A stretch of DNA of 64,000 bases from NCBI GenBank assembly GCA_017467105.1, contig JAFTSU010000014.1, positions 1 through 64,000 on the forward strand, in the 5' to 3' direction. Below the pieces are notes generated by a model. That model did not search any database, was not told where the DNA came from, and was given only the letters and a program-made list of their open reading frames with translations. Positions 15,184 through 48,747 of the stretch are shown in pieces (the first letter of the stretch is position 1; each line of letters begins with the position of its first letter). Position numbers and translations under genes: made by a program. This DNA comes from Clostridia bacterium (GTDB lineage: Bacteria > Bacillota > Clostridia > Oscillospirales > CAG-272).

Positions 15184-16440
15184 TCACCTGTTTTTTACAG
15201 TCTTTGGCTTGCGTCTTATGGCCTTCGAGATTGGCTTCTTTTGCGTTTTTTCCGACGCTTTGCTTTTTGAGTCAGTGCTTTTGATTTTTGAGTCAGTGCT
15301 TTTGCTTTTTGAGTCGGTGTTTTTGCTTTTTAAGTTGGAGCTTTTATTTTTTGAGTCAGTGCTTTTGCTGATAGCACCGGTCTGCGCCGTAGCCCTCGCA
15401 CTCCTTTTCCCCTTTGCTCTTGCTTTTGTAGCTTGTTTCTCTTCGGATGGTTGTTCCGCTTTCAACAGCTCCAGCATTCTTGACGCTGCGATCTCTCTTG
15501 CATCCTGCTTCTGTGCGGCGATGCCCGTTGTGCTTAAGCCCTTGAAGCAGCATTCAATTACGCACATTTTGGCTCCGCCCACTCCCGCGGGAGCTTCTCC
15601 GAGATCGTGATACTCGGGTGAGGGAAGCTTGCCCTTGGCAGCCATTGACTTAAGAGCAGAGAGGGCATCCTGTCGCTTTGCCTCTGCTTGCTCCCATTCG
15701 GCACGTAACGCCTTGAGCGCTACCTCTGCTGCGGCGGCGTCAGCCAGCTTCTGATTTTTACCGGATCCCGTTCCCCAAAGCTTATCGCCTATATAGCAGC
15801 CTCTCTCGTAGATCTTCTTGTGATCGGGTCCGCTCTCGCCAATGGTCTTATATATGGGTGGAGGCAGCCTTCTTTTCTTGTCCGCACACCACTCCTGCAG
15901 AGCGTTCTTGTAACTTTGTACAGGCGCTTCTCCGGATAAATATTCATCCACGTCCAGCATACTGCTCACTACCTTTATAGCCGTGTGTATATCCATTCCG
16001 CAGTCAATGTATACCGCGCCTATTATACTCTCAAAAAGGTCCTCCATAACCGACGCTTCGTCGGCGATACCCAGCTTCTCATCACCCTCGCCCATCAGAA
16101 GAAGCTTGTGAAGTCCGAGAGTCGCCATGCTTTTTGACAGATTTCTCTTGTCACTTAGCTTTGAGCGGATATTTGACATATCACCCTCTGTCAGCTCCGT
16201 TCTGATACCGTGCTCGTATCTTTCGGTCCGCTTTTCCAGCAGCACGGATATGATAGCGGTGGATAGCACGCTGTCGCCGAAGAATTCAAGCACCTCGTTG
16301 GAGGAGTAGCTTGCTCTTCCTTTATAATTTTTTTCATTGCAGTAGCTTGTACGTGTGAATGCCTGTCGCAAAAGGGACTTATCCCTAAAGGTATAGTGAA
16401 TTTTCTTTTCTATTTCATTTATTTTAATGTCAAAGCTCAT
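15184..16440 (-). CDS. RNase III with an extra dsRBD-like domain and a Ser/Lys repeat tail, 418 aa
   Basis: The N-terminal 150 residues are an RNase III nuclease domain with NEVLEFFGDSVLS (E52, D56) and the second acidic site EDLFESIIGA (D134, E137). A double-stranded-RNA-binding domain spans about 175-245. A second dsRBD-like segment spans about 257-327 (PSPEYHDLGEAP... ending DAREIAASRMLELL). Residues about 328-418 are a disordered basic tail with repeated STDSKSK units. Canonical bacterial RNase III is about 220-250 residues, so this one is unusually long. It has its own promoter and is not in the usual rnc-smc-ftsY setting, so it may be the sole RNase III or an extra copy. Confidence 0.85.
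   Translation of the reverse strand: MSFDIKINEIEKKIHYTFRDKSLLRQAFTRTSYCNEKNYKGRASYSSNEVLEFFGDSVLSTAIISVLLEKRTERYEHGIRTELTEGDMSNIRSKLSDKRNLSKSMATLGLHKLLLMGEGDEKLGIADEASVMEDLFESIIGAVYIDCGMDIHTAIKVVSSMLDVDEYLSGEAPVQSYKNALQEWCADKKRRLPPPIYKTIGESGPDHKKIYERGCYIGDKLWGTGSGKNQKLADAAAAEVALKALRAEWEQAEAKRQDALSALKSMAAKGKLPSPEYHDLGEAPAGVGGAKMCVIECCFKGLSTTGIAAQKQDAREIAASRMLELLKAEQPSEEKQATKARAKGKRSARATAQTGAISKSTDSKNKSSNLKSKNTDSKSKSTDSKIKSTDSKSKASEKTQKKPISKAIRRKPKTVKNR
15255..15370 (-). repeat. Tandem repeat in the RNase III tail
   Basis: About five imperfect units of 24 nt, each containing TTTTGAGTCAGTGCTTTTG on the plus strand, encode the STDSKSK-type tail. One unit is diverged (AAGTTGGAGC). Confidence 0.8.
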
Positions 16441-20497: not shown

Positions 20498-20572
20498 TGG
20501 TGACCCGTACGGGAATCGAACCCATGTTACAGCCGTGAAAGGGCCGTGTCTTAACCGCTTGACCAACGGGCC
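20498..20572 (-). tRNA. tRNA-Glu (anticodon TTC)
   Basis: A 75-nt cloverleaf with encoded CCA. The acceptor GGCCCGT pairs with ACGGGTC (one G-U), the anticodon loop is CTTTCAC giving TTC, and the T arm is GGGTTCGATTCCC. It is the second gene of a two-tRNA transcript, five nucleotides after tRNA-Met. Confidence 0.95.
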
Positions 20573-20577
20573 TTTTA

Positions 20578-20654
20578 TGGTAGCGGATGTCGGATTTGAA
20601 CCAACGACCTGCCGGGTATGAACCGGACGCTCTAGCCAACTGAGCTAATCCGCC
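20578..20654 (-). tRNA. tRNA-Met, elongator (anticodon CAT)
   Basis: A 77-nt cloverleaf with encoded CCA. The acceptor GGCGGAT pairs with ATCCGCT apart from a terminal G-U, and the loop TTCATAC gives anticodon CAT. The body (TAGCTCAGTTGGCTAGAGCG) matches elongator tRNA-Met of Bacillota rather than the initiator or the lysidine-modified tRNA-Ile. Confidence 0.9.
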
Positions 20655-21942: not shown

Positions 21943-21971
21943 TTGCAAGAGTAAAACTCTTATGTTATAAT
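21943..21971 (+). promoter_or_regulatory. Promoter of the MutS-like operon
   Basis: TTGCAA, 17 nt, TATAAT, 39 nt before the ATG at 22011. Confidence 0.75.
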
Positions 21972-22010: not shown

Positions 22011-23636
22011 ATGCAGGACAAATTTATCAGCTTGCTCTATCCTACGGCGGAGTCTTACGACGCTCATCAGAGCGGTAAATGCCGTCCCAATATTTCCGAG
22101 AACGTTTGTGACGAGCTCGGACTTACGGAAATATTCGATCTCAAAAACGGCAGACTGTCCGACTTCTTTACGATGGACGGGGAAGTTATCCGCTACCGTC
22201 AGGCGACCATTGAGGATATGATGAGCATTCCCGAGATCAAGGGAACTCTCGCCAAGGTACACCCGATACTCGACGATATAGTTGAGCTTCGCCGTCTGGA
22301 CCGTGAGAATACCTCTGATGCCGATTCTTATCTTTACAGTATTACCGAGATAGAGCTTTACGTCTCCTGTCTGGATACTCTTGCCAAGGGGTTCGGCGCT
22401 GTCAGGGATCGGATAAAGAGTCCCGCGTTTTCAGCTCTGGCGGACTTCACCTCTGAGCTTGTAGGCTCGGAGTACTATGCGGAGCTTAATAAAAAGCTTG
22501 AGTCTCTTGCCGCACGTGTTCACGAGGTACGCAGCATTACCGTGGGAGTTAATCTTGACAGACAGCTCCGTCCGGTGTCCGCGGGAGTTATCTCTATAAA
22601 TTCCGAGCAGTTCAAATCAGGCAAGGTTCTCGACAAGATACTTCGCTTCTCCTTCAAAAACGATGCGTATACCTGCATTGCGGAGCTTTCTCCCTTCGGT
22701 AAGGGGCAGAGTGAAAATCGCAAGGAGGCATTGGTTGGCGCATTCAACACCGCAATCGAGGACGTCTTTCACTCATCGGTTCGCGGCTGGCGCAGCATAG
22801 TTGGAGAGTACGTAATAGATAACACGGACTTTCTCCTTAAGCTCCTTCCGGAGATCGAATTCGTCTCCAAGGCAACGGAGCTTATTGCCAGACTGTCCTC
22901 AAAGCCCGGGTGTACGGTCACCGTTCCCACTCTCGCTCCGATCGGAGAAAAGCGCTTTACGGCAGAGGAGCTTTACAATCCGAGAGTGGCGCTCGCTATC
23001 TCGGACGAGATAGTTACGAACGACATCTCCTTTGACGACCGTGCGGGTATATACGTTCTGACAGGACCTAACCGTGGTGGAAAATCAGTTATTACGGTAG
23101 CTATGGGCGCGGCTCAGGCTATGTGTCAGCTTGGACTTCCCGTAGCGGCAAAAAGCGCTGTTATCTCACCGGCTGATGCGGTGTTTACACATTTCCCCGA
23201 GGGCGCCGACGATACCATTGACAAGGGAAGGCTTGGCGAGGAATGCCAGCGGCTTAAAGAAATATTCGATGCGGTTAGCGAGGACAGCATGATCCTTCTT
23301 GACGAGTCTTTATCATCTACCGGAGCGTACGAGGCGTCCTACATCGCCTCCGAGATACTTACCGGCTTTGCGGTGCTCAGGTGTCGCGGAATCTTCTCCA
23401 CCCACCTTCACGAGCTTGCCGCGGGAGTAGCCGAGATCAACGAGCGCTCGGCGTCAGAGGGCGGTGTAATGATCGATACGCTGGTTGCGGGAATCGAGGA
23501 GGGCAAGAGGTCCTTCAAGATACATCGGCGCACACCGGACGGTAAATCCTACGCCCGAGATATTGCGAACAAATACGGGCTTTCCTTCGATACGCTTATA
23601 TCCAAAGCGCGAGCAGAGAGAGGAGGAGGTCTATGA
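22011..23636 (+). CDS. MutS-family ATPase without mismatch-recognition domain, 541 aa
   Basis: An ABC-type ATPase of the MutS superfamily. The Walker A is TGPNRGGKS (351-359; most MutS proteins have Met where this has Arg), and the Walker B is MILLDES (from 427). A signature-like SLSSTGAYEAS and a FSTHLHELA switch histidine follow. The first 340 residues are helical and correspond to the MutS core/lever region; there is no N-terminal mismatch-binding domain (no Phe-X-Glu motif) and no Smr nuclease domain. I chose ATG 22011 because GAAAGGAG precedes it; an upstream in-frame ATG at 21918 lies before the promoter. It overlaps the pantothenate kinase gene by four nucleotides. A role in mismatch repair is therefore unlikely. 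Confidence 0.8.
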   Translation: MQDKFISLLYPTAESYDAHQSGKCRPNISENVCDELGLTEIFDLKNGRLSDFFTMDGEVIRYRQATIEDMMSIPEIKGTLAKVHPILDDIVELRRLDRENTSDADSYLYSITEIELYVSCLDTLAKGFGAVRDRIKSPAFSALADFTSELVGSEYYAELNKKLESLAARVHEVRSITVGVNLDRQLRPVSAGVISINSEQFKSGKVLDKILRFSFKNDAYTCIAELSPFGKGQSENRKEALVGAFNTAIEDVFHSSVRGWRSIVGEYVIDNTDFLLKLLPEIEFVSKATELIARLSSKPGCTVTVPTLAPIGEKRFTAEELYNPRVALAISDEIVTNDISFDDRAGIYVLTGPNRGGKSVITVAMGAAQAMCQLGLPVAAKSAVISPADAVFTHFPEGADDTIDKGRLGEECQRLKEIFDAVSEDSMILLDESLSSTGAYEASYIASEILTGFAVLRCRGIFSTHLHELAAGVAEINERSASEGGVMIDTLVAGIEEGKRSFKIHRRTPDGKSYARDIANKYGLSFDTLISKARAERGGGL

Positions 23637-24487
23637 GTCTGATAATTGGAATAGACGTGGGCGGAAGCACCACGAAAATAGTCGGAGTCAGAGATGATGG
23701 CGGCGGCCCCGTCCTTATGACTCCCCAGCACGTTACAGCGAATGATCCCATTACGGCGACCTACGGTGCCTTCGGTAAATTTACGCTGGAGAATGGGCTG
23801 AATATATCGGATATTACCAAGGTTATGATGACCGGAGTCGGATCCTCATATATTAAGAAGGACCTCTACGGTCTTGAATGCACCAGAATAGACGAGTTTA
23901 CGGGAATAGGCGTTGGAGGACTTCACTTGTCAGGACTTCCAGAGGCTCTTATAGTCAGTATGGGCACGGGTACTGCTCTCGTTCACGCAAGGAGAGGGGG
24001 TCCTATGACCTACCTTGGAGGAACAGGTGTTGGTGGAGGAAGCCTGATGGGACTCTCCAAGCTGCTGCTCCAGGCTGAAACGGTAAACCACATTGCCGAG
24101 TTTGCCGAGGATGGCGATCTTGAAAACATCGACCTTCGCATCAAGGATATCACGGCGAGTGACGCGCTTGAGACGCTTTCCGGTGATCTGACGGCAGCAA
24201 ACTTCGGTAACGTCTCTGACGTTGCTACCAAGGGTGATATCGCTCTCGGCGTTATGAATATGGTCTTTGAGACCGTCGCCATGGTTTCTGTGTTTGCGGC
24301 ACGCTCGGTAGGAGTTAAGAATATAATACTCACCGGCAACGTCACCCAGCTTGATTATTGCCACCGCAAGTTCGACGAGATGAACGGTATGGGATACGGA
24401 GTCAAGTTTTCCATACCTGACCATTCCAGATTTTCTACGGTGATCGGAGCCGCTCTGTGCGGTCTCTCTGAAAACGGTGATCGCTGA
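23633..24487 (+). CDS. coaW: Type II pantothenate kinase, 284 aa
   Basis: Phosphorylates pantothenate in the first step of coenzyme A synthesis. It belongs to the eukaryote-like type II family (ASKHA fold). The phosphate-1 loop is IIGIDVGGSTTKIVG at residues 3-17. The glutamate-containing DEFTGIGVGG segment, the SMGTGTA phosphate-2 loop and the GGTGVGGGSL stretch are typical of this family. Length matches Staphylococcus CoaW. The start overlaps the stop of the MutS-like gene (ATGA), so the two are translationally coupled, an unexpected partnership. The CBS gene overlaps its end by one nucleotide. Confidence 0.85.
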   Translation: MSLIIGIDVGGSTTKIVGVRDDGGGPVLMTPQHVTANDPITATYGAFGKFTLENGLNISDITKVMMTGVGSSYIKKDLYGLECTRIDEFTGIGVGGLHLSGLPEALIVSMGTGTALVHARRGGPMTYLGGTGVGGGSLMGLSKLLLQAETVNHIAEFAEDGDLENIDLRIKDITASDALETLSGDLTAANFGNVSDVATKGDIALGVMNMVFETVAMVSVFAARSVGVKNIILTGNVTQLDYCHRKFDEMNGMGYGVKFSIPDHSRFSTVIGAALCGLSENGDR

Positions 24488-24918
24488 TGAATATTATGAG
24501 ATTTATCATTCCCAAGAGTATGGTGGAGTACGTTACGGTAGACAGCACCGTCAGACAGGGAATAGAGAAGATGCGATATCACAGGTACGTTGCCATTCCT
24601 GTTCTTGATAGGGACGGTAAGTACGTTGGCACACTTCGAAATGACGATATTTTGAACTATCTTCTGGATAAGGGCTCCTTTGATCAGAGGGATTCGGAGA
24701 GAGACGGAGTAGTTCAGATCATGAGTGATAGATCTGTTAAGCCGGTGTATCATACTTCCTCTGTGGAGGAGGTCATCGAGCAGGTCAAGGAGCATAATTT
24801 CGTGCCGGTCGTTGATGATCGCGGATGCTTTATCGGCATCATTTTACGCAGAGATATTTTAAATTATATATTAAAATTTTATGATGACAAAACAGGGGGA
24901 AACAATGATGGCAGATGA
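24487..24918 (+). CDS. CBS-pair domain protein, 143 aa
   Basis: A stand-alone tandem CBS module, a fold that binds adenine nucleotides such as AMP, ATP or S-adenosylmethionine and acts as an energy sensor. Motif 1 spans about residues 10-60 (TVRQGIEKMRYHRYVAIPVL followed by RDGKYVGTL) and motif 2 about 75-130 (VEEVIEQVKEHNFVPVVD followed by RGCFIGII). There is no attached enzyme or channel domain. It lies in the middle of the MutS-like/pantothenate kinase/giant protein operon, overlapping both neighbours, and could be a regulatory subunit for one of them. Confidence 0.85.
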   Translation: MNIMRFIIPKSMVEYVTVDSTVRQGIEKMRYHRYVAIPVLDRDGKYVGTLRNDDILNYLLDKGSFDQRDSERDGVVQIMSDRSVKPVYHTSSVEEVIEQVKEHNFVPVVDDRGCFIGIILRRDILNYILKFYDDKTGGNNDGR

Positions 24919-27900
24919 AATGAAAGTTTCAACGCCCGGCGAAGAAGCCGTAGCTCCGGTAGCAGAAGAGATTTCTGCTGAAGCGGTTGTATCCGAAGCA
25001 GTCACCGAGGAGGTAGTAGCTGAAGAAGCAGTAGCTGAAGAAGCAGTTGCCGAAGAAGCAGTTGCTGAAGAAGCAGTTGCCGAGGAGGCAATCGAAGAGA
25101 ATGACATTGAGTCAAAGCTCAAGGCTGCAGCCGGCAACATCAAGCGCGCCAAAGCGGAAGCGCGTGCGCGTAAGAGCGAGCAGGAAAAGAGTCAGAAGCA
25201 GGCTGAGGAGGACGCTCAGGCTCGTTTGGAGGAGGCTGAGAAGAGACTTCAGGAGGAGGAGCGTATCGCACAGCTCGTTGCTGAGCAGAAGATGGCGGCT
25301 CTTGACTATGCTCAGAATTACAGAAAGAAAATTTTGAAGGATAGAGAGAGATCACTCTCTCAGGCAAAGCTTCGCGAGAAGCAGGAACGCGAGGAGGCAG
25401 AGGCTCGCATTCGCGAGGAAAAGGCTAAGGAGATCGCGGCTCTTCTCGAGAAGGAGCGCGAGGAGGCAAGAGCGCGCGGCGATAAGGCGACGGCTCTCCT
25501 TAATCGCGTAACCAAGTGCGCAGTAGTAGACGACGACGGCAATCTCCGTATGGTAGATAAGCTTGATCTCGTTAAGGGCAAGGTTGACGTTTCCTCCGCT
25601 GACGAGGATGCATCCGAGGCGGTTGAGCCGGCTGTTGAGAAGCCGGCAGCAGAGGTAGTCGCAGAGGCGCCCAAGCCCACCGTAGCAGCTCCTACACCCG
25701 CACCCGTGTATGAATATACCGAGAGAGTAAGCAAGCAAGAGGCTGCAAGACGCGAGGTCGAAAACTTCCTCGTGGGTGAGATGATCAGCACTCAGGACGA
25801 TAAGTTCGTTCTTTCCATTGAGGATGACCGTATGGTCGTCAACGTAACCTCCGCAGACGATCCTCAGATCGCAGAGGATGGCTGGAGTCCCACAGAGGAG
25901 TTCTATGCCCGTGAGATAGAGATCGCAAAGTCACAGCACGAGTACATATTAAACACTATCAAGGCACAATCCACCTCCGCAAGAAGCGAGATGCTCCGCA
26001 TATTCGCCGAGGAGCAGGAGAGATTTGCTGTAGAGATGGAGGCGCTTCTCGCTCATCATCAGTCTATCGCTGACGAGCAGGCAGCTCGCCGCCAGACCGT
26101 GATCGACGAGATCAACGCAGCAGCAGACGAGGAGGCTCCCGAGATCGCAGAGATTCAGGAGGAGCCTGTAGCTGACGCTGCAGACGAGGCTATCGCCGCC
26201 GTTGAGGTAGAAAGCGGACTTGAGCCGGTTATTAACGACGATCCCGTAGTTATCGAGCTTCGTGAAATGGGCGAGGCGGTTGAAACCAAGCGCCAGCTCA
26301 AGAAGTATCTGAAGAAGAGCAACAAGGCGGTTAAGAAGTATAACAAGCAGATCAATTCTATTGATTCCTCCTCAGAGAACTTTGAGGATGAGCGCCGCAA
26401 GGTTTCAATTATCCGCGCTATGCGTCTGTGTGGCTCCGTTCTTGAGATAAGATGCGACAACCTTTCCGCCGCAGCGGCAGTAGGCAAGGCAAAGCTTGTT
26501 AACAAGTGCGTTGATGTTCTTTACGGAGAGATCGAGAGATACAACAGCAGAGCAACCGCGTTTGCTGATATCAGCGGCGTACAGCTGACCCGTGTATCAG
26601 CATTCCTTCCCGATCACATTGCAAATGGTACGGGTAGAGCGGTCATTCCCGCTATGACGTACAGAGAGAGATACGAGGAATTCTGCGAGAAGCCCGAAAC
26701 CGCTCCCAGAAGCTATACCTTCAACTTCCCCTCTCTCGGCGACCTTGTGAACGGCAACGTGGAGAACGGATATCCCACAGTTACCGCTATTGATGAAAAG
26801 ATAGCTACCAACCCCGTTACCTCCGTAACTCCCATTCAGGCGTCTCTTACAGAGTATGACCTGCTGGGCGATAAGATCGAGATAACCTCCAAGAGAAAGC
26901 TTAAGAAGCTTCGCAAGCGCGCAGCAAAGGCAGACAAGAAGATTGCCCGTGAGGTTGCGCGCCTTAACGACAAGCTTGACGACGCAGCTACCTCCGTTGC
27001 TGCTCTCGCCCTTGAAAGAGAGCGCGTTATAGTTGCTTCCCGTGTGCTCGTAGAGTCTGTAAAGCTTGGCAACGCTAAATTTATTTATGCCTCCAAGCGC
27101 GCGCTCGTAGAGGCTCTTGCACGTTACAATCAGTATGCATCGGCTTGCTCCGCTGCATGCGATACGCCCGTAACGGAGATACATTCCATTACGGCAGACA
27201 GAGTAGCCGAGGCTGCGCTTCTTCCCGACGTTCCCGTGATGGCTCACGTATTCGAGCTTTACGAGACCGTTGGTGAGAATACCAGAATAGTAGGCGAGCC
27301 TACCGATGAGGAGAAGAACGTTATCGGCGGCAATTGCACGTTCATATTCGGCGGACACGCACCCGTTGCTTCCACCGAAAGCGATGAGGCTTCGGGCGCT
27401 TTGGCAGGTGCGGCAGTTGCGGCAGCTGCAGGAGCGGCTATCGGTTATGCTGCTGCAGAGCAGAACGAGGCTGCGGCAGAAGAGACTCACCTTGTTGAGA
27501 GCAATGACGAGGTCGTTGTGGCAGAGGAGGAGTCCGCTCCCCTTTCCAAGAAGGAGCTTAAGAAGCGCTATGCGGCGGCTGATAAGAACTACAAGAAAGT
27601 TAAAAAGGAAATTGAGGCTCTCGAGTGCTCTAAGTACGGCGCTACCGCTGAGGACGTTGTTGACATAGACGTCAAGATTCTCATCATAGCTAAGAACCTT
27701 ATCGACTCCGTCGCGGAGGACGTAGCTGTGGCTCACACCTCTCTTGATAAGTCCGCGCTTAAGAAGTATCGCGCAAGGCTTAACTCAGAGATCGTATATC
27801 ACAACTCCATAGTTGACGAGCTCTTTGATGTAGCAAACGTTACTCTTACGAAGGCATCCGTAGATATGTACGACGAGATCGTCTCCGGAGAGGGATACAG

Positions 27901-29389
27901 AAAGACTCCTAAGATCGAGTATCAGGTAACCGAGAGAGCACCCGCTCAGGAGGCTGTTGTGGTTGATCAGTCCGAGGAGGAGCCCGTTAAGCCTGAATAT
28001 ACCGGCAGCGCAACTCGCGCTATCAAGGTTATGAACAAGAAGGAACTTAAGAGATTCCTTAAGAATAACGATAAGAAGGCTGATCTTATCAGATACGAGC
28101 TTGTCGGCCTCAGCAATCAGAAGAATGCTGCCGAGGGCCGTGATATGATCATAGCTATTGTTAATTGCATCAATGCGCAGAGAAGTATAGTTGAGCTTTC
28201 TATCGAGAATCTGCTTGCATCCTGCCAGGTTGGCGACAAGAAGTATGAGAAGAAGCGCTCCCTCGCTCTTGACGTAGAGGTTGATATTTACAACAACTTC
28301 GTTCGTGAGTATACCGATCTTACAGAGGACGAGATCACCTATGCTGACCGTGAGCTCTCATCCAAGATCGTTCTTGGTAAGCCCTATAGCAACCTTCCTA
28401 TTCTCAGCTACACCACCGAGACCACCGCATACTCCTACGATTACGCAGATTACACCGCGTATAAGGTTGAAAACGAGAATGCGGAGAAGCTCAGTCGCGC
28501 TCAGGCACACAACAGAGTAGAGAAGAGCAATGCCGAGACCTACGAGATCGCAACTCTCGCAGCGGCCGTTGCAAAGCAGGCAAACAAGGATCAGAGGCTT
28601 ATCGCCGCAAGATTTATGTACGAGAAGAACCTGCTCCAGAGCGACTACGATATGTTCCGTTACAGATACGGTCTTATGGATAAGAAGACAAGACTCTCTC
28701 GCGGTACTATAGAGAAGAAGTGCAAGGCACTTGACAAGAAGGGTAAGGAGGCTCTCGCTCTTGAGAGAGCTGATAACAACCGTTATTATAAGGTTATCAA
28801 CACCAATCCATACCAGCTTAAGTTCAAGAATCATAAGAAGCAGGAGCAGGCTGTAGCTCTCCGTGAGAAGATCATGCAGCTCCTGAACGAGAGAGATCAT
28901 CTGAACGGCAAGCTTATATCTATCTACGAGGGTAATGAGGTTGACCTTGAGGGCAACACCATCACCATGGCAATGAGACGCGTTAAGGACACTGCGGCAA
29001 GCAAGGAATACAAGCGTCAGCGCCGCTCGGCTAAGAAGGTTAATAAGCTTCATGCGGAAAGAGTGGATAAGCAGAAGCTCTACGATCTCATCAACACTCA
29101 GATCATGGCAGAGTCTACCATCGCTATGTCTCAGCACCGTCTGAAGCACGAGCAGCTCACCTCAACCGAGAAGCGTCAGCTTCGCCGTGATATTGATAAG
29201 AATAAGTCCGCGAAGAAATCCGCAAAGAAGCAGTTCGGCTGGCTTCTTAAGAGAATAGCGAACGCTCACCGCGATGCAGGTGGCTCCTGGCTTACCGCTC
29301 TCGGTATCATCCTGGCAGTTCTCTTGGTGATCATCGTGCTGTTCGCTTGGTTCTTTGGCGGCGATGTCATAGCTAATCTTGGATTATAA
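24905..29389 (+). CDS. Giant coiled-coil protein with four internal repeats and a C-terminal membrane anchor, 1494 aa
   Basis: I do not recognise this family. Residues about 36-62 are tandem AVAEE units, and 75-215 are a highly charged coiled coil. Four homologous modules of about 115 residues follow at about 460-575, 662-778, 881-1005 and 1044-1166. Each opens with a KKELKK-type basic helix, has a central helix around LxxSV, then a basic helix and an EIxxYN motif, and ends in Ala/Pro-rich linkers. Another coiled-coil region leads to a single transmembrane helix near 1462-1484 (WLTALGIILAVLLVIIVLFA), leaving a short tail. No signal peptide, so the bulk is cytoplasmic and tail-anchored. The ATG at 24905 has AGGGGGA upstream and overlaps the CBS gene by 14 nt; an alternative ATG lies at 24881. 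Confidence 0.8.
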   Translation: MMADEMKVSTPGEEAVAPVAEEISAEAVVSEAVTEEVVAEEAVAEEAVAEEAVAEEAVAEEAIEENDIESKLKAAAGNIKRAKAEARARKSEQEKSQKQAEEDAQARLEEAEKRLQEEERIAQLVAEQKMAALDYAQNYRKKILKDRERSLSQAKLREKQEREEAEARIREEKAKEIAALLEKEREEARARGDKATALLNRVTKCAVVDDDGNLRMVDKLDLVKGKVDVSSADEDASEAVEPAVEKPAAEVVAEAPKPTVAAPTPAPVYEYTERVSKQEAARREVENFLVGEMISTQDDKFVLSIEDDRMVVNVTSADDPQIAEDGWSPTEEFYAREIEIAKSQHEYILNTIKAQSTSARSEMLRIFAEEQERFAVEMEALLAHHQSIADEQAARRQTVIDEINAAADEEAPEIAEIQEEPVADAADEAIAAVEVESGLEPVINDDPVVIELREMGEAVETKRQLKKYLKKSNKAVKKYNKQINSIDSSSENFEDERRKVSIIRAMRLCGSVLEIRCDNLSAAAAVGKAKLVNKCVDVLYGEIERYNSRATAFADISGVQLTRVSAFLPDHIANGTGRAVIPAMTYRERYEEFCEKPETAPRSYTFNFPSLGDLVNGNVENGYPTVTAIDEKIATNPVTSVTPIQASLTEYDLLGDKIEITSKRKLKKLRKRAAKADKKIAREVARLNDKLDDAATSVAALALERERVIVASRVLVESVKLGNAKFIYASKRALVEALARYNQYASACSAACDTPVTEIHSITADRVAEAALLPDVPVMAHVFELYETVGENTRIVGEPTDEEKNVIGGNCTFIFGGHAPVASTESDEASGALAGAAVAAAAGAAIGYAAAEQNEAAAEETHLVESNDEVVVAEEESAPLSKKELKKRYAAADKNYKKVKKEIEALECSKYGATAEDVVDIDVKILIIAKNLIDSVAEDVAVAHTSLDKSALKKYRARLNSEIVYHNSIVDELFDVANVTLTKASVDMYDEIVSGEGYRKTPKIEYQVTERAPAQEAVVVDQSEEEPVKPEYTGSATRAIKVMNKKELKRFLKNNDKKADLIRYELVGLSNQKNAAEGRDMIIAIVNCINAQRSIVELSIENLLASCQVGDKKYEKKRSLALDVEVDIYNNFVREYTDLTEDEITYADRELSSKIVLGKPYSNLPILSYTTETTAYSYDYADYTAYKVENENAEKLSRAQAHNRVEKSNAETYEIATLAAAVAKQANKDQRLIAARFMYEKNLLQSDYDMFRYRYGLMDKKTRLSRGTIEKKCKALDKKGKEALALERADNNRYYKVINTNPYQLKFKNHKKQEQAVALREKIMQLLNERDHLNGKLISIYEGNEVDLEGNTITMAMRRVKDTAASKEYKRQRRSAKKVNKLHAERVDKQKLYDLINTQIMAESTIAMSQHRLKHEQLTSTEKRQLRRDIDKNKSAKKSAKKQFGWLLKRIANAHRDAGGSWLTALGIILAVLLVIIVLFAWFFGGDVIANLGL
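25010..25095 (+). repeat. Tandem repeat encoding AVAEE units
   Basis: About five units of 15 nt (GAAGAAGCAGTTGCT and close variants) in frame within the giant protein gene. Confidence 0.8.
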
Positions 29390-29401
29390 GGAGGAATTGA
29401 A

Positions 29402-29611
29402 ATGAAGAAGAAGAACGTATCCGCACTTTCGGAAACGGCGGCTGTCAAGTCACGTTCCTCCGAGGCAGCAGATCTCGAGCGGGACAGACTCGCGATCGTT
29501 AAGGATCTGGAGAAGCTTATGAAGCGTTACTCCAAGGTTGTAGGAGATAAGAGTCTTGCTAAGCGTAAATACAGCATAGGCAAGGGTCCTCACGATTTTT
29601 CCGCAAAATAA
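29402..29611 (+). CDS. Small basic protein of the giant-protein operon, 69 aa
   Basis: A small, soluble, charged protein of unknown family. The middle (LERDRLAIVKDLEKLMKRYSKVV) is a predicted amphipathic helix, and the C-terminus is basic with KRKYSIGKGPHDF. It starts 12 nt after the giant gene with a perfect AAGGAGG ribosome binding site and is followed by the operon's terminator, so it is a genuine gene. Its helix could pair with the coiled coil of the giant protein, which is inference from position only. Confidence 0.8.
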   Translation: MKKKNVSALSETAAVKSRSSEAADLERDRLAIVKDLEKLMKRYSKVVGDKSLAKRKYSIGKGPHDFSAK

Positions 29612-29648: not shown

Positions 29649-29685
29649 GGGAGTGCGGGCAATGCCTGTACTCCCCTTTTTAGTT
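29649..29685 (+). terminator. Terminator of the MutS-like/giant-protein operon
   Basis: GGGAGTGCGGGCA pairs with TGCCTGTACTCCC (one G-U mismatch region), followed by CCTTTTTA. Confidence 0.88.
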
Positions 29686-35352: not shown

Positions 35353-38300
35353 ATGATCAAACAATTGAAAGCTTTTAGGCTTATCGTGCTTTGCCTTATC
35401 ATTACTCTGTCCCTAAGCCTTGCATCCTGTGTAGTGACTCCCGGAGGCTCGGGCGGCTCAGGTGAATCGGGCGGCGAATCCGGCGGTGGCTCAGGTGAAT
35501 CGGGCGGCGAATCCGGCGGCGGCTCAGGTGAATCGGGCGGCGAATCCGGCGGCAACTCAGGCGAATCCGGCGGCAACTCAGGCGAATCCGGTGGAGACGA
35601 TAAGCCCGACGGCGTTACTATGCCCACTCTTGAGGGCCTGTTTGACGCTAACCACAGCATACTTCTCGGAGATAGCCTCCATCTTTATCCCGGCAGACCG
35701 TTAACCGTATTCGTGATGTTTGACGGCTCCCATCCCGACTTCTGTCACGGCAAAGTGAGTGGAGACTCGCTTTCTGAGGATATTACGATTGGTGGAATAA
35801 AGGTTAACGGCTTTGAGCATGAGGGCAAGAGATATTTTGCCTATTCTATGGTTATTCCCGATCTGGAGACGGAGGGAGATTATACTTTGACTCTGTCCTG
35901 GGGTCTCGGTGAGGAGCGCGCGGAGCACGTATACTCCATCAGGGTTGATGACGTGCTTGACAATCCCAGCGGTGTTGCAGGATATTTCCTTGATGCCAAG
36001 GGTGACCTCGACCCCGGCTTTATCAGCAATAATATCAGAATAACTCACGGTGTCGGAGCGATTATTTATCTGCGTTTCAGCGCACCCGTGTCAAATCTTA
36101 ACCTTTTCATATTTGATCTCAACATAAATACAGCTCCGACCTACAGCTATAGCGACGGTAATGCCGTATACGTTTTTGAGATCGATACCCTTTTTGCCGA
36201 CTATGGCAGGGAATACTCGGTTTATATAAGCCACGGCTCGTCCGGAATGGACCAGACAAATATAAATATTAATGCGATCGTCGGTCAAGGCAGTGACGAT
36301 GGCGGCGACGAGGAAATTCACAGTTTCCTTGGAGTTTCTGCAAACGATATCGAGCCTCTTGGAGATCGCTTAGCTCTTGAGGGTGTGCAGGACGAGACTA
36401 TCTACTTCTTCTTTGATAAGGAGGTATATCCCTTAGGCCTCATTACCGATTGGGGCGAGATGACCGATTTTAATTCTTACCAATGTGGAAGCTACTACGT
36501 TGTAGGAGCAAAATATCCCGCTGCCGAGGTAGGTGACTATAAGGCGTCTCTCAGATACTACTTCAACGGCGTGGAGTATTACGCGCACTGCGGTGTAAGC
36601 ATATCTGTTGGATCCGCTCCTAAGGAAATCTCCTTCCTTGGCGTATGCCTGCAGGGCGAATATTCTTTAAGACGTGAGATCACCGTAACCGAGGGAGAGA
36701 ACACCATTTTCGTCGTTTACTTCTCCGGAAGCGTTGAGGACGTGAGCGTTTACTTTATGCAGAACGACGGCTGGGGCGGTCACGCAGGCAGCAGCATTGA
36801 CTATGATGGAAGACACTATCATCTGATATCTGTGCCTGAGGTGCTGGCGGGCAGCGATTCCGTAAGGGTATCCTATACCGTAAACGGCGAGGCGCGTGAG
36901 GATTTCTTCACGGTTACGATAAACCCGTCGGATAACTTAGGCAGCGATTTCGTGGGCGCTAAGGCACACTATGACGGCACGTTCGAAAAGAACGTTACAG
37001 TTTATGCCGGAACGGAATTCACTCTGTACGTAGCATTCAAAAACGAGCACGAGAACATCTCTCTTATGCTGGGTCAGTATGAGACTGCGTTTGAACCCTA
37101 TGACTTCTCCTACACCGCTGAAGGTTGGATATTTAAGTTCAAGACCTATCCTCTTTTCGAGGGCAGCGATACCTGCACAGTTATTGATAAGTTTGGAAGA
37201 ACCATTGCTGAGTTCGGCATAGAGGCTAAGAGCAGTGATACGAGCGAGGCAACCCTGCTTGGCGTTATGACCGAAGAAATGACCGGACCGATGCCTTATC
37301 TTGAAATTATGACCGGAGTTGAACAGCAGCAGGTCTTCGTTATCTTCAGCAAGGACGTAGACGGCTTAGAGATTTATTTGAGCGGCGGAAAGCTTGATAT
37401 ATTCGCTTCTGGTTCATCACCTATCGGTCATTACTACGGAGTGATCCTGCCTACCCTGTATTCCGAGGGAGACTACGGTCTGGCTGTCAACTACGTTGAC
37501 GTAACGGGAGAGGTGGTCAGAGAGGGAATAAGCATTATTGCCACAAGCGGTAAGGAAGAGCCTGAGCCCGAGTCGGATCCCGTATACCTCGGCGTAATGC
37601 TCTCCGAAACCGGAAACCCCTCCGATTCCGTGACCGTGGATTACGGAGTTCCGTCAATTATATATCTTGTTTTCGATAAATACGCAGAGATAGAAGGCAG
37701 CATAAGCGTCTCCGACGACGGCTCGAACGACTATCTTGGCGAGGGACACTACGTTTCCGATTACTATTACGTAATACCGTTGTATATCGGTCCTATCACC
37801 GCAGGTCTGCACCGTGACGTAAACTTCTCCTATTTTACAAGCGCAGGTAACGGTTACGGATACTTTGCGGTAATGTTAAACCGCCCTTACGTTGAGCCCA
37901 TTACGTACGTAGGCGTTTCGGTGGACGGTGCTGATCCTGTTAATTCCGATTTTCTGACCGTTACACCGGGTGAGCACAGCTTCCGCTTTATTTATACCGG
38001 CGATAGCTCGAACGTTACCTACGTTGGAGGTATTGGAGGCCTGGATCTCTCGTATTATATCACCGAGTCGGACGGAGGATTTGCAGTTGAATGCTCCTAC
38101 TACTTCGATATGACTATGGAGTACGAAATCTCATATCAGGTGTATGCTACGTACTTCGACGGTGAGATCACGGAGACTAACACCTTATTCGTTGGCGTTA
38201 AGCTTGAGTCTGAGCCCGAAATGGTGGGAGCCAGATTCAAAGAGGGTGAGGACTTCTCTTACGAGCTTGAAATTCTAAATACTACAGACACACTTCCTCT

Positions 38301-39180
38301 TATGATAGGGTTTACCGCTCCCGTTTTCGTCACCGACGTGATGATAGGCAACTATCATTTCTCTCCTACAGTGGAGGCTGTAGGCGTCGCTGAGGGGCTA
38401 TACGTGTGCGAGATTCCCGTTGAGATCTACTGTATAGGTCTTGATAACTGCGAGGCAAAAATAGAGTACACCTACTACGGTCAGGTGTTCTACGGTTCAT
38501 TTGCCGTGAACGTGGTCAGGAGAGATATGACTGCTCTCTACGATGCTGACGGAAATGATCTGTTGAAATCGGACGGGGATATGACCCTCTGGATAGGCTA
38601 CAAGGAGTCTATCGATCTTATATGCGTATATAACTTTGAGCCTCAGCGCGTTGAGGTTATGCACGATTTTGGTGCATTCATCCTTGAGTGCGAGGGCTAC
38701 AGCGATAACTATGGCGGATACGTGGTAAGAATTCACGTTGAATACTACGAGATAGGAACAGAGGGACCAACGGCGCTGAAGTACAACATAATCTCCTACG
38801 ATAGCATGGGAGAGATACAAGATTCTCCAAGCAAGCTCGTGATAGTCAATCTTACAGAGGGTCCTCTTACGGCTTTCGGCATCAATACCGACGGCGTTAC
38901 TACGGGAAACGGCTCTCTTAATTTCGCTCCCGGCGATATGACTCCCGTGTTCATTATGATTAATAAGATGACCGACTCCGTATTCTTTAATCTTTGGTCT
39001 GACGGAGTGCAGAACTGTATCGTTAAGCCTACGGAAATAAATTACGTTTCAGATGGACTGTACGCCGCTAGAATAGATTTCCCAAGCTATGAGGAAGGCG
39101 CGAATTACAAGATCTGCGTTATGGAGGGAGATGAAACGCTGTACGGCATAGTTTACTCCGTAACCTATTACTCGAATTAA
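35353..39180 (+). CDS. Large surface lipoprotein with about eleven Ig-like repeats, 1275 aa
   Basis: A lipoprotein signal peptide (residues 1-26) ends with lipobox-like LASC. A repetitive SGESGG linker of about 55 residues follows. The rest is about eleven tandem beta-rich modules of roughly 95-110 residues. Most begin with a [FYLM][LV]G[VA] motif (FLGVS, FLGVC, FVGAK, LLGVM, YLGVM, YVGVS, MVGAR) followed by a YxxFxxxV-type strand. This is the architecture of an extended Ig-like or cadherin-like surface rod. No catalytic domain or sortase signal is visible. The amidohydrolase gene starts 22 nt later, so they may be co-transcribed. Confidence 0.8.
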   Translation: MIKQLKAFRLIVLCLIITLSLSLASCVVTPGGSGGSGESGGESGGGSGESGGESGGGSGESGGESGGNSGESGGNSGESGGDDKPDGVTMPTLEGLFDANHSILLGDSLHLYPGRPLTVFVMFDGSHPDFCHGKVSGDSLSEDITIGGIKVNGFEHEGKRYFAYSMVIPDLETEGDYTLTLSWGLGEERAEHVYSIRVDDVLDNPSGVAGYFLDAKGDLDPGFISNNIRITHGVGAIIYLRFSAPVSNLNLFIFDLNINTAPTYSYSDGNAVYVFEIDTLFADYGREYSVYISHGSSGMDQTNININAIVGQGSDDGGDEEIHSFLGVSANDIEPLGDRLALEGVQDETIYFFFDKEVYPLGLITDWGEMTDFNSYQCGSYYVVGAKYPAAEVGDYKASLRYYFNGVEYYAHCGVSISVGSAPKEISFLGVCLQGEYSLRREITVTEGENTIFVVYFSGSVEDVSVYFMQNDGWGGHAGSSIDYDGRHYHLISVPEVLAGSDSVRVSYTVNGEAREDFFTVTINPSDNLGSDFVGAKAHYDGTFEKNVTVYAGTEFTLYVAFKNEHENISLMLGQYETAFEPYDFSYTAEGWIFKFKTYPLFEGSDTCTVIDKFGRTIAEFGIEAKSSDTSEATLLGVMTEEMTGPMPYLEIMTGVEQQQVFVIFSKDVDGLEIYLSGGKLDIFASGSSPIGHYYGVILPTLYSEGDYGLAVNYVDVTGEVVREGISIIATSGKEEPEPESDPVYLGVMLSETGNPSDSVTVDYGVPSIIYLVFDKYAEIEGSISVSDDGSNDYLGEGHYVSDYYYVIPLYIGPITAGLHRDVNFSYFTSAGNGYGYFAVMLNRPYVEPITYVGVSVDGADPVNSDFLTVTPGEHSFRFIYTGDSSNVTYVGGIGGLDLSYYITESDGGFAVECSYYFDMTMEYEISYQVYATYFDGEITETNTLFVGVKLESEPEMVGARFKEGEDFSYELEILNTTDTLPLMIGFTAPVFVTDVMIGNYHFSPTVEAVGVAEGLYVCEIPVEIYCIGLDNCEAKIEYTYYGQVFYGSFAVNVVRRDMTALYDADGNDLLKSDGDMTLWIGYKESIDLICVYNFEPQRVEVMHDFGAFILECEGYSDNYGGYVVRIHVEYYEIGTEGPTALKYNIISYDSMGEIQDSPSKLVIVNLTEGPLTAFGINTDGVTTGNGSLNFAPGDMTPVFIMINKMTDSVFFNLWSDGVQNCIVKPTEINYVSDGLYAARIDFPSYEEGANYKICVMEGDETLYGIVYSVTYYSN
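35455..35600 (+). repeat. Tandem repeat encoding the SGESGG linker
   Basis: Three near-identical 33-nt units followed by shorter units, each containing GGTGAATCGGGCGGCGAATC or close variants. Length variation by slippage would change linker length without frameshift. Confidence 0.88.
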
Positions 39181-46543: not shown

Positions 46544-46565
46544 ATAGACGGTAAATGGTTTTTGT

Positions 46566-46633
46566 GACCGACGGACAGCGGAATTGACCGCAAGGAAGCA
46601 AAAATCTCTGGCAATTGTCGACCGTCTGGGCAG
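46566..46633 (+). promoter_or_regulatory. ZTP (ZMP/ZTP, pfl) riboswitch
   Basis: The leader matches the pfl/ZTP aptamer pattern: GACCGACGGACAGCGGAA, then ACCGCAAGGAAGC, a variable linker, then CGACCGTCTGGGCA. ZTP reports folate (10-formyl-THF) shortage through ZMP accumulation. Here it precedes a purine operon that encodes both formyl-THF-dependent transferases (PurN and AICAR transformylase), which fits the known biology. The 3' GGGC of the aptamer overlaps the stem of the terminator at 46628-46660. Confidence 0.8.
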
Positions 46634-46672
46634 AACTACCTTTCCGGGTGAGTTCTGCCCATTTTGTTTTTT
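46628..46672 (+). terminator. Riboswitch-controlled attenuator
   Basis: GGGCAGAACT (46628-46637) pairs perfectly with AGTTCTGCCC (46651-46660), followed by ATTTTGTTTTTT. Its 5' arm shares GGGCA with the aptamer, so ligand-bound aptamer and terminator should exclude each other, giving an ON switch. Confidence 0.85.
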
Positions 46673-47307: not shown

Positions 47308-48747
47308 ATGGGAGTATTCGGAATAATCGGTAAGGAGAAGGTCAACGTAGCCTCTAGCGTATACTACGGTCTGTACGCGCTGCAGCACAGAGGTCAGGAG
47401 TCGTCGGGTATAGTTGTTAACGATGACGGAATGTTCACGGTGCATAAGGGCTCGGGTATAGTCAACGAGGTGTTTGACGGCGAGTCGCTGAAGAAGCTGG
47501 GCTACGGCAATATGGCTATCGGTCACGTTCGCTACGGAACTCTTGGAACCAGAGGCGTGATCAACGCAGAGCCCATCGTGATAAATCACGTCAAGGGCAA
47601 GCTTGCTATTGCAACCGCCGGCGGAATATCAAACGCATCCGCTTTGAAGCGGGAGCTGGAGATGCAGGGTATGATCTTCCACACGACCAACGAGGCGGAG
47701 GTCGTGTCCTACGTTATCACCCGTGAGCGTATTACCGCTTCGTCAATAGAGGAGGCGGTCAGCCGAGCTATGTATAAGCTGGAGGGCGGATACTGCCTCT
47801 TGCTGATGTCACCTCAAAAGCTTATCGCGGTCAGAGATCCCTACGGCTTCCATCCTATATGCTACGGCAGACGTGACGACGGTCAGTACGTTATAGCCAG
47901 CGAGACCTGCGCCCTTGATTCTGTAGGCGCGACGCTCGTTAAGGAGCTGGACCCCGGTGAGATCGTAGTGTTCTCCAGTGAGGGAGTCAGATCCATCAGA
48001 GAGCATTGCGGCACCAAGCCCGAGAGGCTTTGTATATTTGAATACTTCTATACGGCGCGTCCCGATTCGTCTCTTTATTCAAGATCCGTTCACGAGGCTA
48101 GAAAGAGGGCAGGCGCACTGCTTGCCAAGGCTCATCCAGTGGAGGCTGACGTGGTGGTAGGTGTTCCGGATTCCGGTCTTGATGCAGCTCTCGGATACGC
48201 TATGGAGTCCGGAATACCCTACGGTATAGGACTGATAAAGAATAAGTACATAGGCAGAACCTTCATAGCGCCAGGACAGGACGTGCGTGAGGATAAGGTA
48301 AAGATAAAGCTTAATCCGGTAAAATCAACCGTTGCAGGCAAGCGCATAGTTCTTGTGGATGATTCGATAGTGCGCGGCACCACCTGCGCCAAGCTTATCC
48401 ACCTGCTTAAGAGCGCCGGAGCCAAGGAGGTTCATCTCCGCTCCTCATCCCCGCCGTTCCTTAACCCGTGCTATTACGGTACGGATATTGAGTCCCGTGA
48501 TTCTCTGATTGCGTGCAATCACTCCATTGAGGAGATAAGACGCATTACGGGCGCGGATTCTCTTGGCTATCTTCGTCTGGAGGATGCGTGTAAGATAGGA
48601 GAGGGAAGCACCGCCGGAGGCTATTGCACAGCTTGCTTTGACGGAAAATATCCTACCGGTATCCCAACCTCATATGTTAATAAATACGAAAAGAAAATAT
48701 CTGACAATGAATCTGTAAAGGTGAAAGAAAGCGAGGAAGCAAAGTGA
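47308..48747 (+). CDS. purF: Amidophosphoribosyltransferase with a degenerate glutaminase site, 479 aa
   Basis: Makes phosphoribosylamine from PRPP. The PRTase domain is intact, with [12 protein letters not shown] (about 349-360) and [12 protein letters not shown]. Iron-sulfur Cys residues are kept, including GYCTACF near 440. The N-terminal Ntn glutaminase domain is unusual: the protein begins MGVFGIIG, so the catalytic Cys1 of CGVFGI is replaced by the start Met; an in-frame stop 24 nt upstream excludes a longer start. The oxyanion NGN motif reads ATAGGISN (Asn to Ala at 104). HVRYGT is kept. It should not hydrolyse glutamine and may use ammonia or a partner glutaminase. Overlaps purM by four nucleotides. 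Confidence 0.9.

What the first reader, a model, noticed from the sequence alone, without database searches (positions are those of the whole stretch)
22011..29611. Uncharacterised operon: MutS-like ATPase, pantothenate kinase, CBS protein, giant repeat protein, small protein
Seen: five genes with overlaps or tiny gaps, one promoter and one terminator. The MutS-like ATPase lacks mismatch and nuclease domains; a type II pantothenate kinase and a stand-alone CBS pair are translationally coupled to it; the last two encode a tail-anchored repeat protein and its small neighbour. No known system that I can name combines these. Inference: a nucleotide- or CoA-sensing module that controls a membrane-attached scaffold, with the MutS-type clamp as motor or sensor.
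Basis: partly seen in the sequence, partly recalled or inferred. Interest (0 to 1): 0.72.

Follow-up and report, generated by a model that had tools for sequence, protein, structure and literature searches.

The report
Stacked operon with giant membrane-anchored protein
In one group of gut bacteria, a vitamin-to-CoA enzyme and its likely sensor, a cut-down DNA-repair-type ATPase and a fast-changing giant membrane-anchored protein share an operon, but the parts come and go separately, so they look like neighbours brought together rather than one machine.

Summary
The five genes are real, at the stated coordinates and tightly packed. A survey of 69 genomes of the genus shows stacked modules, not one conserved machine. 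(1) PanK-II and CBS are within 500 bases of each other, same strand, in 42 of 42 genomes holding both; this pair also exists without MutS or giant. (2) The MutS-like gene is in 61 of 69 genus genomes and, at E 1e-100, 75 of 146 family genomes; outside one clade it lies elsewhere, often beside Lrp and an aminotransferase. (3) The giant is found only in genomes with this locus arrangement, and nowhere outside the genus in a sample of 394 genomes of the order. Within the group, giant, MutS, PanK or CBS can each be missing while the rest stay. The MutS-like protein is a MutS III-IV-V core without domains I and II or an Smr tail. The giant has four 122-residue repeats, predicted three-helix bundles, usually a C-terminal membrane anchor, and evolves much faster than its neighbours. 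Best reading: a co-expressed, accreted operon of CoA supply with its sensor, an ATP-driven clamp, and a membrane-tethered helical scaffold. A MutS-driven scaffold is not excluded but has no direct support.

The parts
21943..21971 (+). promoter-like site TTGCAA-17-TATAAT with TG before the second hexamer
   Evidence: consensus match only; promoter-like sites are over-represented in the region
22011..23636 (+). MutS-core ATPase, 541 aa (MutS domains III-IV-V; Walker A GPNRGGKS; no domain I/II, KOW or Smr found)
23633..24487 (+). type II pantothenate kinase-like protein (Fumble fold), 284 aa; start overlaps the previous gene by 4 bases
24487..24918 (+). stand-alone CBS-domain pair, 143 aa, 1-base overlap with PanK
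24908..29389 (+). giant helical repeat protein, 1493 aa, C-terminal tail anchor; start overlaps CBS by 11 bases (start chosen behind the GGGGG at 24895-24899; the open frame begins at 24881)
26276..26641 (+). giant, repeat 1
26879..27226 (+). giant, repeat 2
27536..27901 (+). giant, repeat 3 (predicted three-helix unit)
28025..28390 (+). giant, repeat 4 (predicted three-helix unit)
28466..29293 (+). giant, shared C-terminal helical domain (DNxRYY and LLNERDxxNxKLxxIYxG-type motifs)
29291..29347 (+). giant, C-terminal hydrophobic segment (tail anchor), mean hydropathy 3.18 over 19 residues
29402..29611 (+). small charged protein, 69 aa, follows the giant
29649..29675 (+). intrinsic-terminator-like hairpin, 12 pairs, T-rich tail

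Best explanation
This is an accreted operon whose parts share expression but are functionally separable. Seen: PanK-II and CBS are a pair that exists with or without the other genes and often lies before rimP-nusA; the MutS-core ATPase stands in front of them in one clade only and elsewhere has other neighbours; a giant gene, often with a small gene behind it, occupies the gap between CBS and rimP in that group. Inferred: PanK-II makes 4'-phosphopantothenate for CoA, and the CBS protein, which should bind an adenine nucleotide or c-di-AMP, tunes it. Inferred: the MutS-core protein is a dimeric ATP-driven clamp acting on a partner other than mismatched DNA, with a role older than the operon. 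Inferred: the giant is a cytoplasmic rod of three-helix bundles held at the membrane by its tail, of variable length, a scaffold or spacer working like (not related to) EzrA, and the small protein is its partner. Joint expression ties CoA supply and an envelope scaffold to one transcript; no physical five-part complex is needed.
Against: Gene order has been kept in the group while MutS fell to 66-79% identity (11 loci), which can mean more than chance neighbours. All giants sit in the group with this locus, so linkage is confounded with ancestry and co-function cannot be excluded. Two unlinked genomes, G030 and G088, have MutS and PanK 5.8 and 7.9 kb apart on one strand, so the two were near each other in some other lineages. 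PanK is not beside rimP in 6 of 16 non-operon loci read, so the ancestral layout is inferred. The genomes are incomplete MAGs; some absences may be gaps. The PanK lacks the Arg of S. aureus PanK-II at 113 and scores 222 bits against a 234-bit cut-off. The giant's structure rests on a model with pTM 0.39.
Confidence: 0.6

Rival explanations
1. One dedicated five-part system: CBS/PanK sense nucleotide or CoA state and the MutS-type clamp assembles or remodels the membrane scaffold.
For: Order kept in 17 of 69 genomes on one contig; in nine further linked genomes the contig was seen to end in or near the giant; tight overlaps; giant found only with this locus.
Against: MutS, PanK-CBS and giant each occur without one of the others; MutS is far wider spread than the giant; G022 and G076 keep giants without MutS.
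Confidence: 0.14
2. The MutS-core protein is an enzyme reactivase or chaperone of the KamC kind, serving a cofactor-dependent amino-acid enzyme; its place beside PanK is incidental.
For: Best NCBIfam hit by E-value is KamC; other families of the order carry back-to-back pairs of such genes (L083, L084); common neighbours outside the group are Lrp and an aminotransferase.
Against: 74 bits against KamC's cut-off of 300, and MutS2 and MutS score nearly the same; I recognised no aminomutase by eye among the neighbours printed, but none was searched for.
Confidence: 0.12
3. The MutS-core protein acts on ribosomes, like MutS2, and sits beside the rimP-nusA-infB translation operon for that reason.
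Against: No KOW or Smr domain found, which recruit MutS2 to collisions (same abstract); in the MutS loci outside the group no rimP was found in the stretch read; rimP has its own promoter-like site after a terminator-like hairpin.
Confidence: 0.08
4. The giant and small genes are weakly constrained lineage-specific genes in a permissive spot between CBS and rimP, with little function.
For: C-terminal domain only 20-57% identical (10 loci) while nusA is 77-94%; giant ORFs from 823 to 3218 codons, and one of 3384 open at one end; missing in G011 and G070.
Against: Long open frames in 31 of 34 genomes of the group; the C-terminal domain and the tail anchor (19 of 23) recur; in three genomes without a reachable tail anchor an internal hydrophobic region is present.
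Confidence: 0.13

Closest known systems
MutS2 (TIGR01069) and MutS1 (TIGR01070, PRK05399)
   Same: MutS core: lever helices, small clamp region, domain V ATPase with intact Walker A and B
   Different: 541 aa; starts at MutS domain III, so no domains I and II, and no KOW or Smr tail found; scores 63-73 bits against cut-offs of 400-642
KamC, lysine 5,6-aminomutase reactivase ATPase (NF052383)
   Same: Model length (508) and ATPase region similar; best E-value among NCBIfam models
   Different: 74 bits against 300; a single gene here; function known to me only from the NCBIfam name
Type II pantothenate kinase (S. aureus CoaW; PRK13317)
   Same: Fumble fold, DVGGSTTK motif, Glu aligned with S. 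aureus E70
   Different: Tyr or His where S. aureus has R113; just under the NCBIfam cut-off (222.3 of 234)
CbpB/DarB, c-di-AMP-binding CBS protein (NF041630)
   Same: Stand-alone CBS pair of about 140 aa
   Different: 77.7 bits against 125; next to a pantothenate kinase gene; ligand unknown
EzrA
   Same: Membrane-anchored rod of roughly 100-residue three-helix bundles (PMC5354558, passages read)
   Different: Anchor at the C terminus, 1493 aa, variable repeat number, no Pfam family above cut-off

Membership tests
MutS1 mismatch repair protein | mismatch-recognition domain I and connector domain II | tested here: not met
   model aligns to E. coli MutS only from about residue 258 onward; Pfam MutS_V only
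MutS1 mismatch repair protein | domain V ATPase with Walker A and B | tested here: met
   GPNRGGKS in 64 of 64 and the LLDESLSSTG-type Walker B in 62 of 64 ORFs read (ORFs, some from the same genome)
MutS2 | C-terminal KOW and Smr domains | tested here: not met
   protein ends where the MutS2 core ends (about MutS2 residue 511); no Smr hit in Pfam
KamC reactivase | curated score cut-off of NF052383 (300 bits) | tested here: not met
   74.3 bits
KamC reactivase | reactivates an aminomutase | not testable with these tools
   needs biochemistry
type II pantothenate kinase | Fumble domain above Pfam cut-off | tested here: met
   73.9 bits against 28.5
type II pantothenate kinase | curated cut-off of PRK13317 (234 bits) | tested here: not met
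   222.3 bits over the whole length
type II pantothenate kinase | catalytic Glu (S. aureus E70) and Arg (R113) (roles recalled) | tested here: inconclusive
   the Glu aligns (E88) and an EF at this site was seen in all 48 ORFs; the Arg position is Y127, and Tyr or His in all 48 (one genome twice, one ORF from another family)
type II pantothenate kinase | supplies PanK function in the cell | tested here: inconclusive
   of 36 genus genomes 31 have it; of the 5 without, 2 have CoaX; 5 of the 31 also have CoaX; 33 of 36 have at least one; type I CoaA not searched
CbpB/DarB c-di-AMP receptor | curated cut-off of NF041630 (125 bits) | tested here: not met
   77.7 bits
CbpB/DarB c-di-AMP receptor | binds c-di-AMP | not testable with these tools
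   needs a ligand binding assay
EzrA-like spectrin-type scaffold | tandem three-helix bundle repeats | tested here: inconclusive
   predicted only: two three-helix units in the modelled C-terminal half, pTM 0.39; four repeats by profile
EzrA-like spectrin-type scaffold | N-terminal transmembrane helix | tested here: not met
   in the window protein the only segment over the hydropathy threshold is C-terminal
EzrA-like spectrin-type scaffold | fold match to solved spectrin-type rods | tested here: inconclusive

The most novel reading that the evidence does not exclude
The giant and small proteins form a bacterial tail-anchored, spectrin-like rod system whose assembly is gated by an ATP-driven MutS-core clamp and tuned by nucleotide or CoA status through the CBS-PanK pair: a MutS-family machine repurposed to remodel a membrane skeleton.
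Probability: 0.07. Interest if true: 0.78.

Novelty: new variant of a known kind. Interest (0 to 1): 0.42.

Why it matters
Two parts are of general interest. First, a MutS-core ATPase without the DNA-mismatch or ribosome-recruiting domains is nearly universal in this genus (21 of 22 of the better genomes) and common in its family, so it probably has a basic job that I could not name. Second, the giant is a lineage-specific, fast-evolving, usually membrane-anchored helical repeat protein with no relative in the libraries searched, a candidate bacterial membrane-skeleton element. The recurrent PanK-CBS pair makes a direct test of nucleotide control of CoA synthesis easy. The survey also shows how an operon can look like one machine in one genome yet be a stack of separable modules.

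Tried and rejected
One five-part machine: rejected as the leading view because modules occur without one another. Anti-phage system: no PADLOC match at E 0.1 for any of the five. Phage cargo: PHROGs hits for MutS-like and CBS only, to families without a function, none for giant or small; a viral-contig scan with the window's C-terminal piece (close relatives only) found no relative. Plasmid-borne giant: tblastn of the same piece found nothing in 72,556 plasmid records. Known repeat fold: profile searches of PDB sequences with the repeat alignment (best E 0.027) and the C-terminal domain (none at 0.1) gave nothing convincing; Foldseek best E 0.55. Pfam matches of the giant C-terminal halves: seven families, each in one of 21 members, best E 0.00059; I treat them as chance. 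A Gly/Ala-rich stretch at giant residues 826-852 resembles a glycine zipper (Pfam E 0.0054, under its cut-off); not followed. Papers: nine searches. None listed a paper on KamB/KamC reactivation that I could use, and the one opened for it (PMC12429584, passages) does not mention KamB or reactivation, so the KamC link rests on the NCBIfam name. None held MutS, pantothenate kinase, CBS domain and operon together. Named MutS subfamilies (MutS7/8) were seen in a search listing only, not compared. In-frame stop before the hydrophobic tail of the G012 giant: considered as programmed read-through and not favoured, since G022 and G076 have no hydrophobic tail after their stops.

Limits of the counts. 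Thresholds: MutS 1e-60, PanK 1e-30, CBS 1e-10, giant domain 1e-5. The small gene was not searched genus-wide: it was recognised in 13 genomes' loci, and in other complete giant-rimP intervals (for example L058, L060, L121) an ORF of 70-72 codons lies there unrecognised. Dropped rows: duplicate records L033, L035, L050 in the alignment; L032-L036 and L050 in the PanK motif count. The MutS tree used 47 of 61 genus sequences (linked genomes G063 and G081 are not in it) and 4 of 6 full-length outgroup ORFs. Seven linked genomes have the giant domain on another contig (G001, G018, G063, G064, G071, G072, G079) and three have no domain hit because the contig ends (G059, G061, G078); the contig end was seen in all but G063, which I did not fetch.
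Full report
Observation. The window lies on contig 4 of a 1.68 Mb incomplete genome (56.6% complete). The nearest named relatives are metagenome-assembled Clostridia and Oscillospiraceae; 10 of 19 loci name a ruminant colon, rectum or caecum in the record title. The five genes are present as described, on one strand, with overlaps of 4, 1 and 11 bases and a 12-base gap. A terminator-like hairpin follows (29649-29675), then rimP-nusA-ylxR-L7Ae-infB (these names rest on my reading of the sequences). An FMN-reductase-type gene diverges upstream.

Distribution of MutS. Matches at E 1e-60 or better occur in 61 of 69 genus genomes, and in 21 of 22 that are at least 90% complete and at most 5% contaminated. 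In the family, 104 of 146 genomes and 56 of 71 genera have a match at 1e-20; the weaker ones are other MutS-like proteins, and 75 of 146 have one at 1e-100 or better (my count from the list). In 46 loci, 45 of them outside the operon group, the gene is followed on the same strand by an aminotransferase in 17 and an Lrp/AsnC regulator in 15, and preceded by a PHP gene in 9 (families checked on single examples). In 28 of these loci the flanks are at most 1.5 kb, so these are lower bounds. None of those 28 showed another gene of the operon.

PanK and CBS. PanK-II is in 60 of 69 genus genomes and CBS in 43; they are on one strand within 500 bases in all 42 that have both. Three of these (G028, G065, G087) have gaps of 341-368 bases, in G028 with a 113-codon ORF between. 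Of 16 non-operon PanK loci read, 10 lie before rimP: five with CBS (L086, L087, L088, L090, L091) and five without (L093, L094, L097, L099, L100); six do not (L089, L092, L095, L096, L098, L101). A member of one AMP-binding ligase cluster precedes PanK in G021, G024, G026 and G032 (Pfam on the G024 protein). Outside the genus, G048 and G054 have both PanK-II and a CBS match but on different contigs. Of 36 genus genomes searched for CoaX (TIGR00671), 7 have it; 33 of 36 have PanK-II or CoaX; of the five without PanK-II, two (G012, G023) have CoaX; five have both. G012 has no PanK in the operon while keeping MutS, CBS and giant. This fits a real pantothenate kinase, but the Arg of S. aureus PanK-II at 113 is Tyr or His in all 48 ORFs read, while the Glu is kept. 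The catalytic roles of these residues are recalled.

The giant. A C-terminal domain profile (A1) finds 29 of 69 genus genomes. In a sample of 394 genomes of the order it finds two, the window's own and one genus-mate; at least five of the 394 are of this genus, and unmatched rows were not all listed. Giant ORFs cut by contig ends in G059 and G061 carry the repeats too. Counting those, 31 of the 34 genomes with this locus (31 MutS-PanK-linked plus G012, G022, G076) show a giant; G011 and G070 lack it in an intact locus and G078 cannot be judged. None of the 26 genomes with unlinked MutS and PanK has the domain.

Anatomy of the giant. A profile started from two window repeats finds four copies of about 122 residues in the window protein and 0-8 in the other giant ORFs; shuffled giants (3 of each) gave none. 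Zero in some relatives may mean divergence beyond detection or a cut ORF. The modelled C-terminal half (21 sequences, mean pLDDT 77, pTM 0.39) shows two three-helix units, a helical C-terminal domain and one very long last helix running into the hydrophobic tail. No solved structure matches convincingly. Of 23 genomes whose giant C-terminus I could read, 19 end in a hydrophobic segment. The exceptions are G012, where an in-frame stop precedes it, G022 and G076, where it is gone, and G015. In G012, G022 and G076, and also G059, an earlier part has one to three hydrophobic segments; G015 has none over the threshold. I read this as membrane attachment being kept by another route in those lineages; that is inference.

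Rates. Against the window, in 11 chosen operon loci, MutS is 66-79% identical (11 loci), PanK 64-76% (10), CBS 56-73% (10), nusA 77-94% (10), the giant's C-terminal domain 20-57% (10) and the small protein 32-57% (7). The giant and the small gene therefore evolve much faster than the genes around them.

History. In a tree of 47 genus MutS-like proteins plus 4 outgroup proteins the 29 linked genomes in it and G012 form one clade (SH-aLRT 99; no bootstrap, quick search, very long outgroup branches). Relocation of MutS to PanK thus looks like one event, and the giant appears in the same clade. Because both traits mark one clade, their association is close to a single evolutionary observation. Against a wholly sudden join, G030 and G088 have MutS and PanK 5.8 and 7.9 kb apart on one strand. 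G022 and G076 keep PanK-CBS-giant-small next to the diverging reductase gene but have no MutS match; they are 80% and 88% complete, so absence elsewhere is likely but not proven, while absence at the locus is seen. CBS was not detected in G013, G071, G073, G078 and G079 of the group.

Interpretation. The pattern is that of an accreted operon. PanK-CBS is the persistent pair; the MutS-core ATPase and the giant are additions, each separable. The giant is best read as a tail-anchored helical scaffold, working like EzrA, whose rod is five roughly 100-residue three-helix bundles behind an N-terminal membrane helix (PMC5354558, passages read). It is not an EzrA: the anchor is at the other end and no Pfam family matches above cut-off. 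For the MutS-core protein the precedent for work off mismatched DNA is MutS2, whose ATPase splits stalled ribosomes (PMC10897456, abstract and outline read), but the recruiting KOW and Smr domains are not there. For the CBS protein the nearest named family is CbpB; the title of PMC7900238 calls the B. subtilis DarB a c-di-AMP receptor that controls (p)ppGpp synthesis (title, abstract start and one passage seen). Whether this CBS protein binds c-di-AMP is untested.

Verdict. The single-machine interpretation is only partly supported. The unusual leftovers are a widespread MutS-core ATPase of unknown role and an orphan, fast-changing giant membrane-anchored repeat protein.

Noticed in passing
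window 46554-46638 (+): ZMP/ZTP riboswitch (Rfam RF01750, 59 bits) before a purine-synthesis gene run starting at 47308 (gene names by reading the sequence).
   Followed up: no
window 35353-39180 (+): 1275-aa predicted lipoprotein with a Gly/Ser-rich linker, directly downstream of infB (by reading).
   Followed up: no
window 15184-16440 (-): RNase III-like protein with a long Lys/Ser/Thr-rich C-terminal tail of near-repeats (by reading).
   Followed up: no
L083 (7523-10788), L084 (6017-9458), L082: Back-to-back pairs of two different MutS-core ATPase genes in other families of the order, possibly heterodimers; the second gene of the L082 pair is in pieces.
   Followed up: partly
L053 around 1409 (-): Giant of G012 ends at an in-frame stop followed by a hydrophobic tail-like sequence before the next gene; G022 and G076 have no such tail.
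   Followed up: yes
L128, L133: Giant ORFs of 3384 codons (open at one end, G079) and 3218 codons (G015) in genomes of about 2.1 and 1.2 Mb.
   Followed up: no
window 20501-20654 (-): Two adjacent tRNA genes between the GH39-type gene and the FMN-reductase gene upstream of the operon.
   Followed up: no
L089 7021-7362: A 113-codon ORF, by eye like an alkyltransferase-like protein, lies between PanK and CBS in G028.
   Followed up: no
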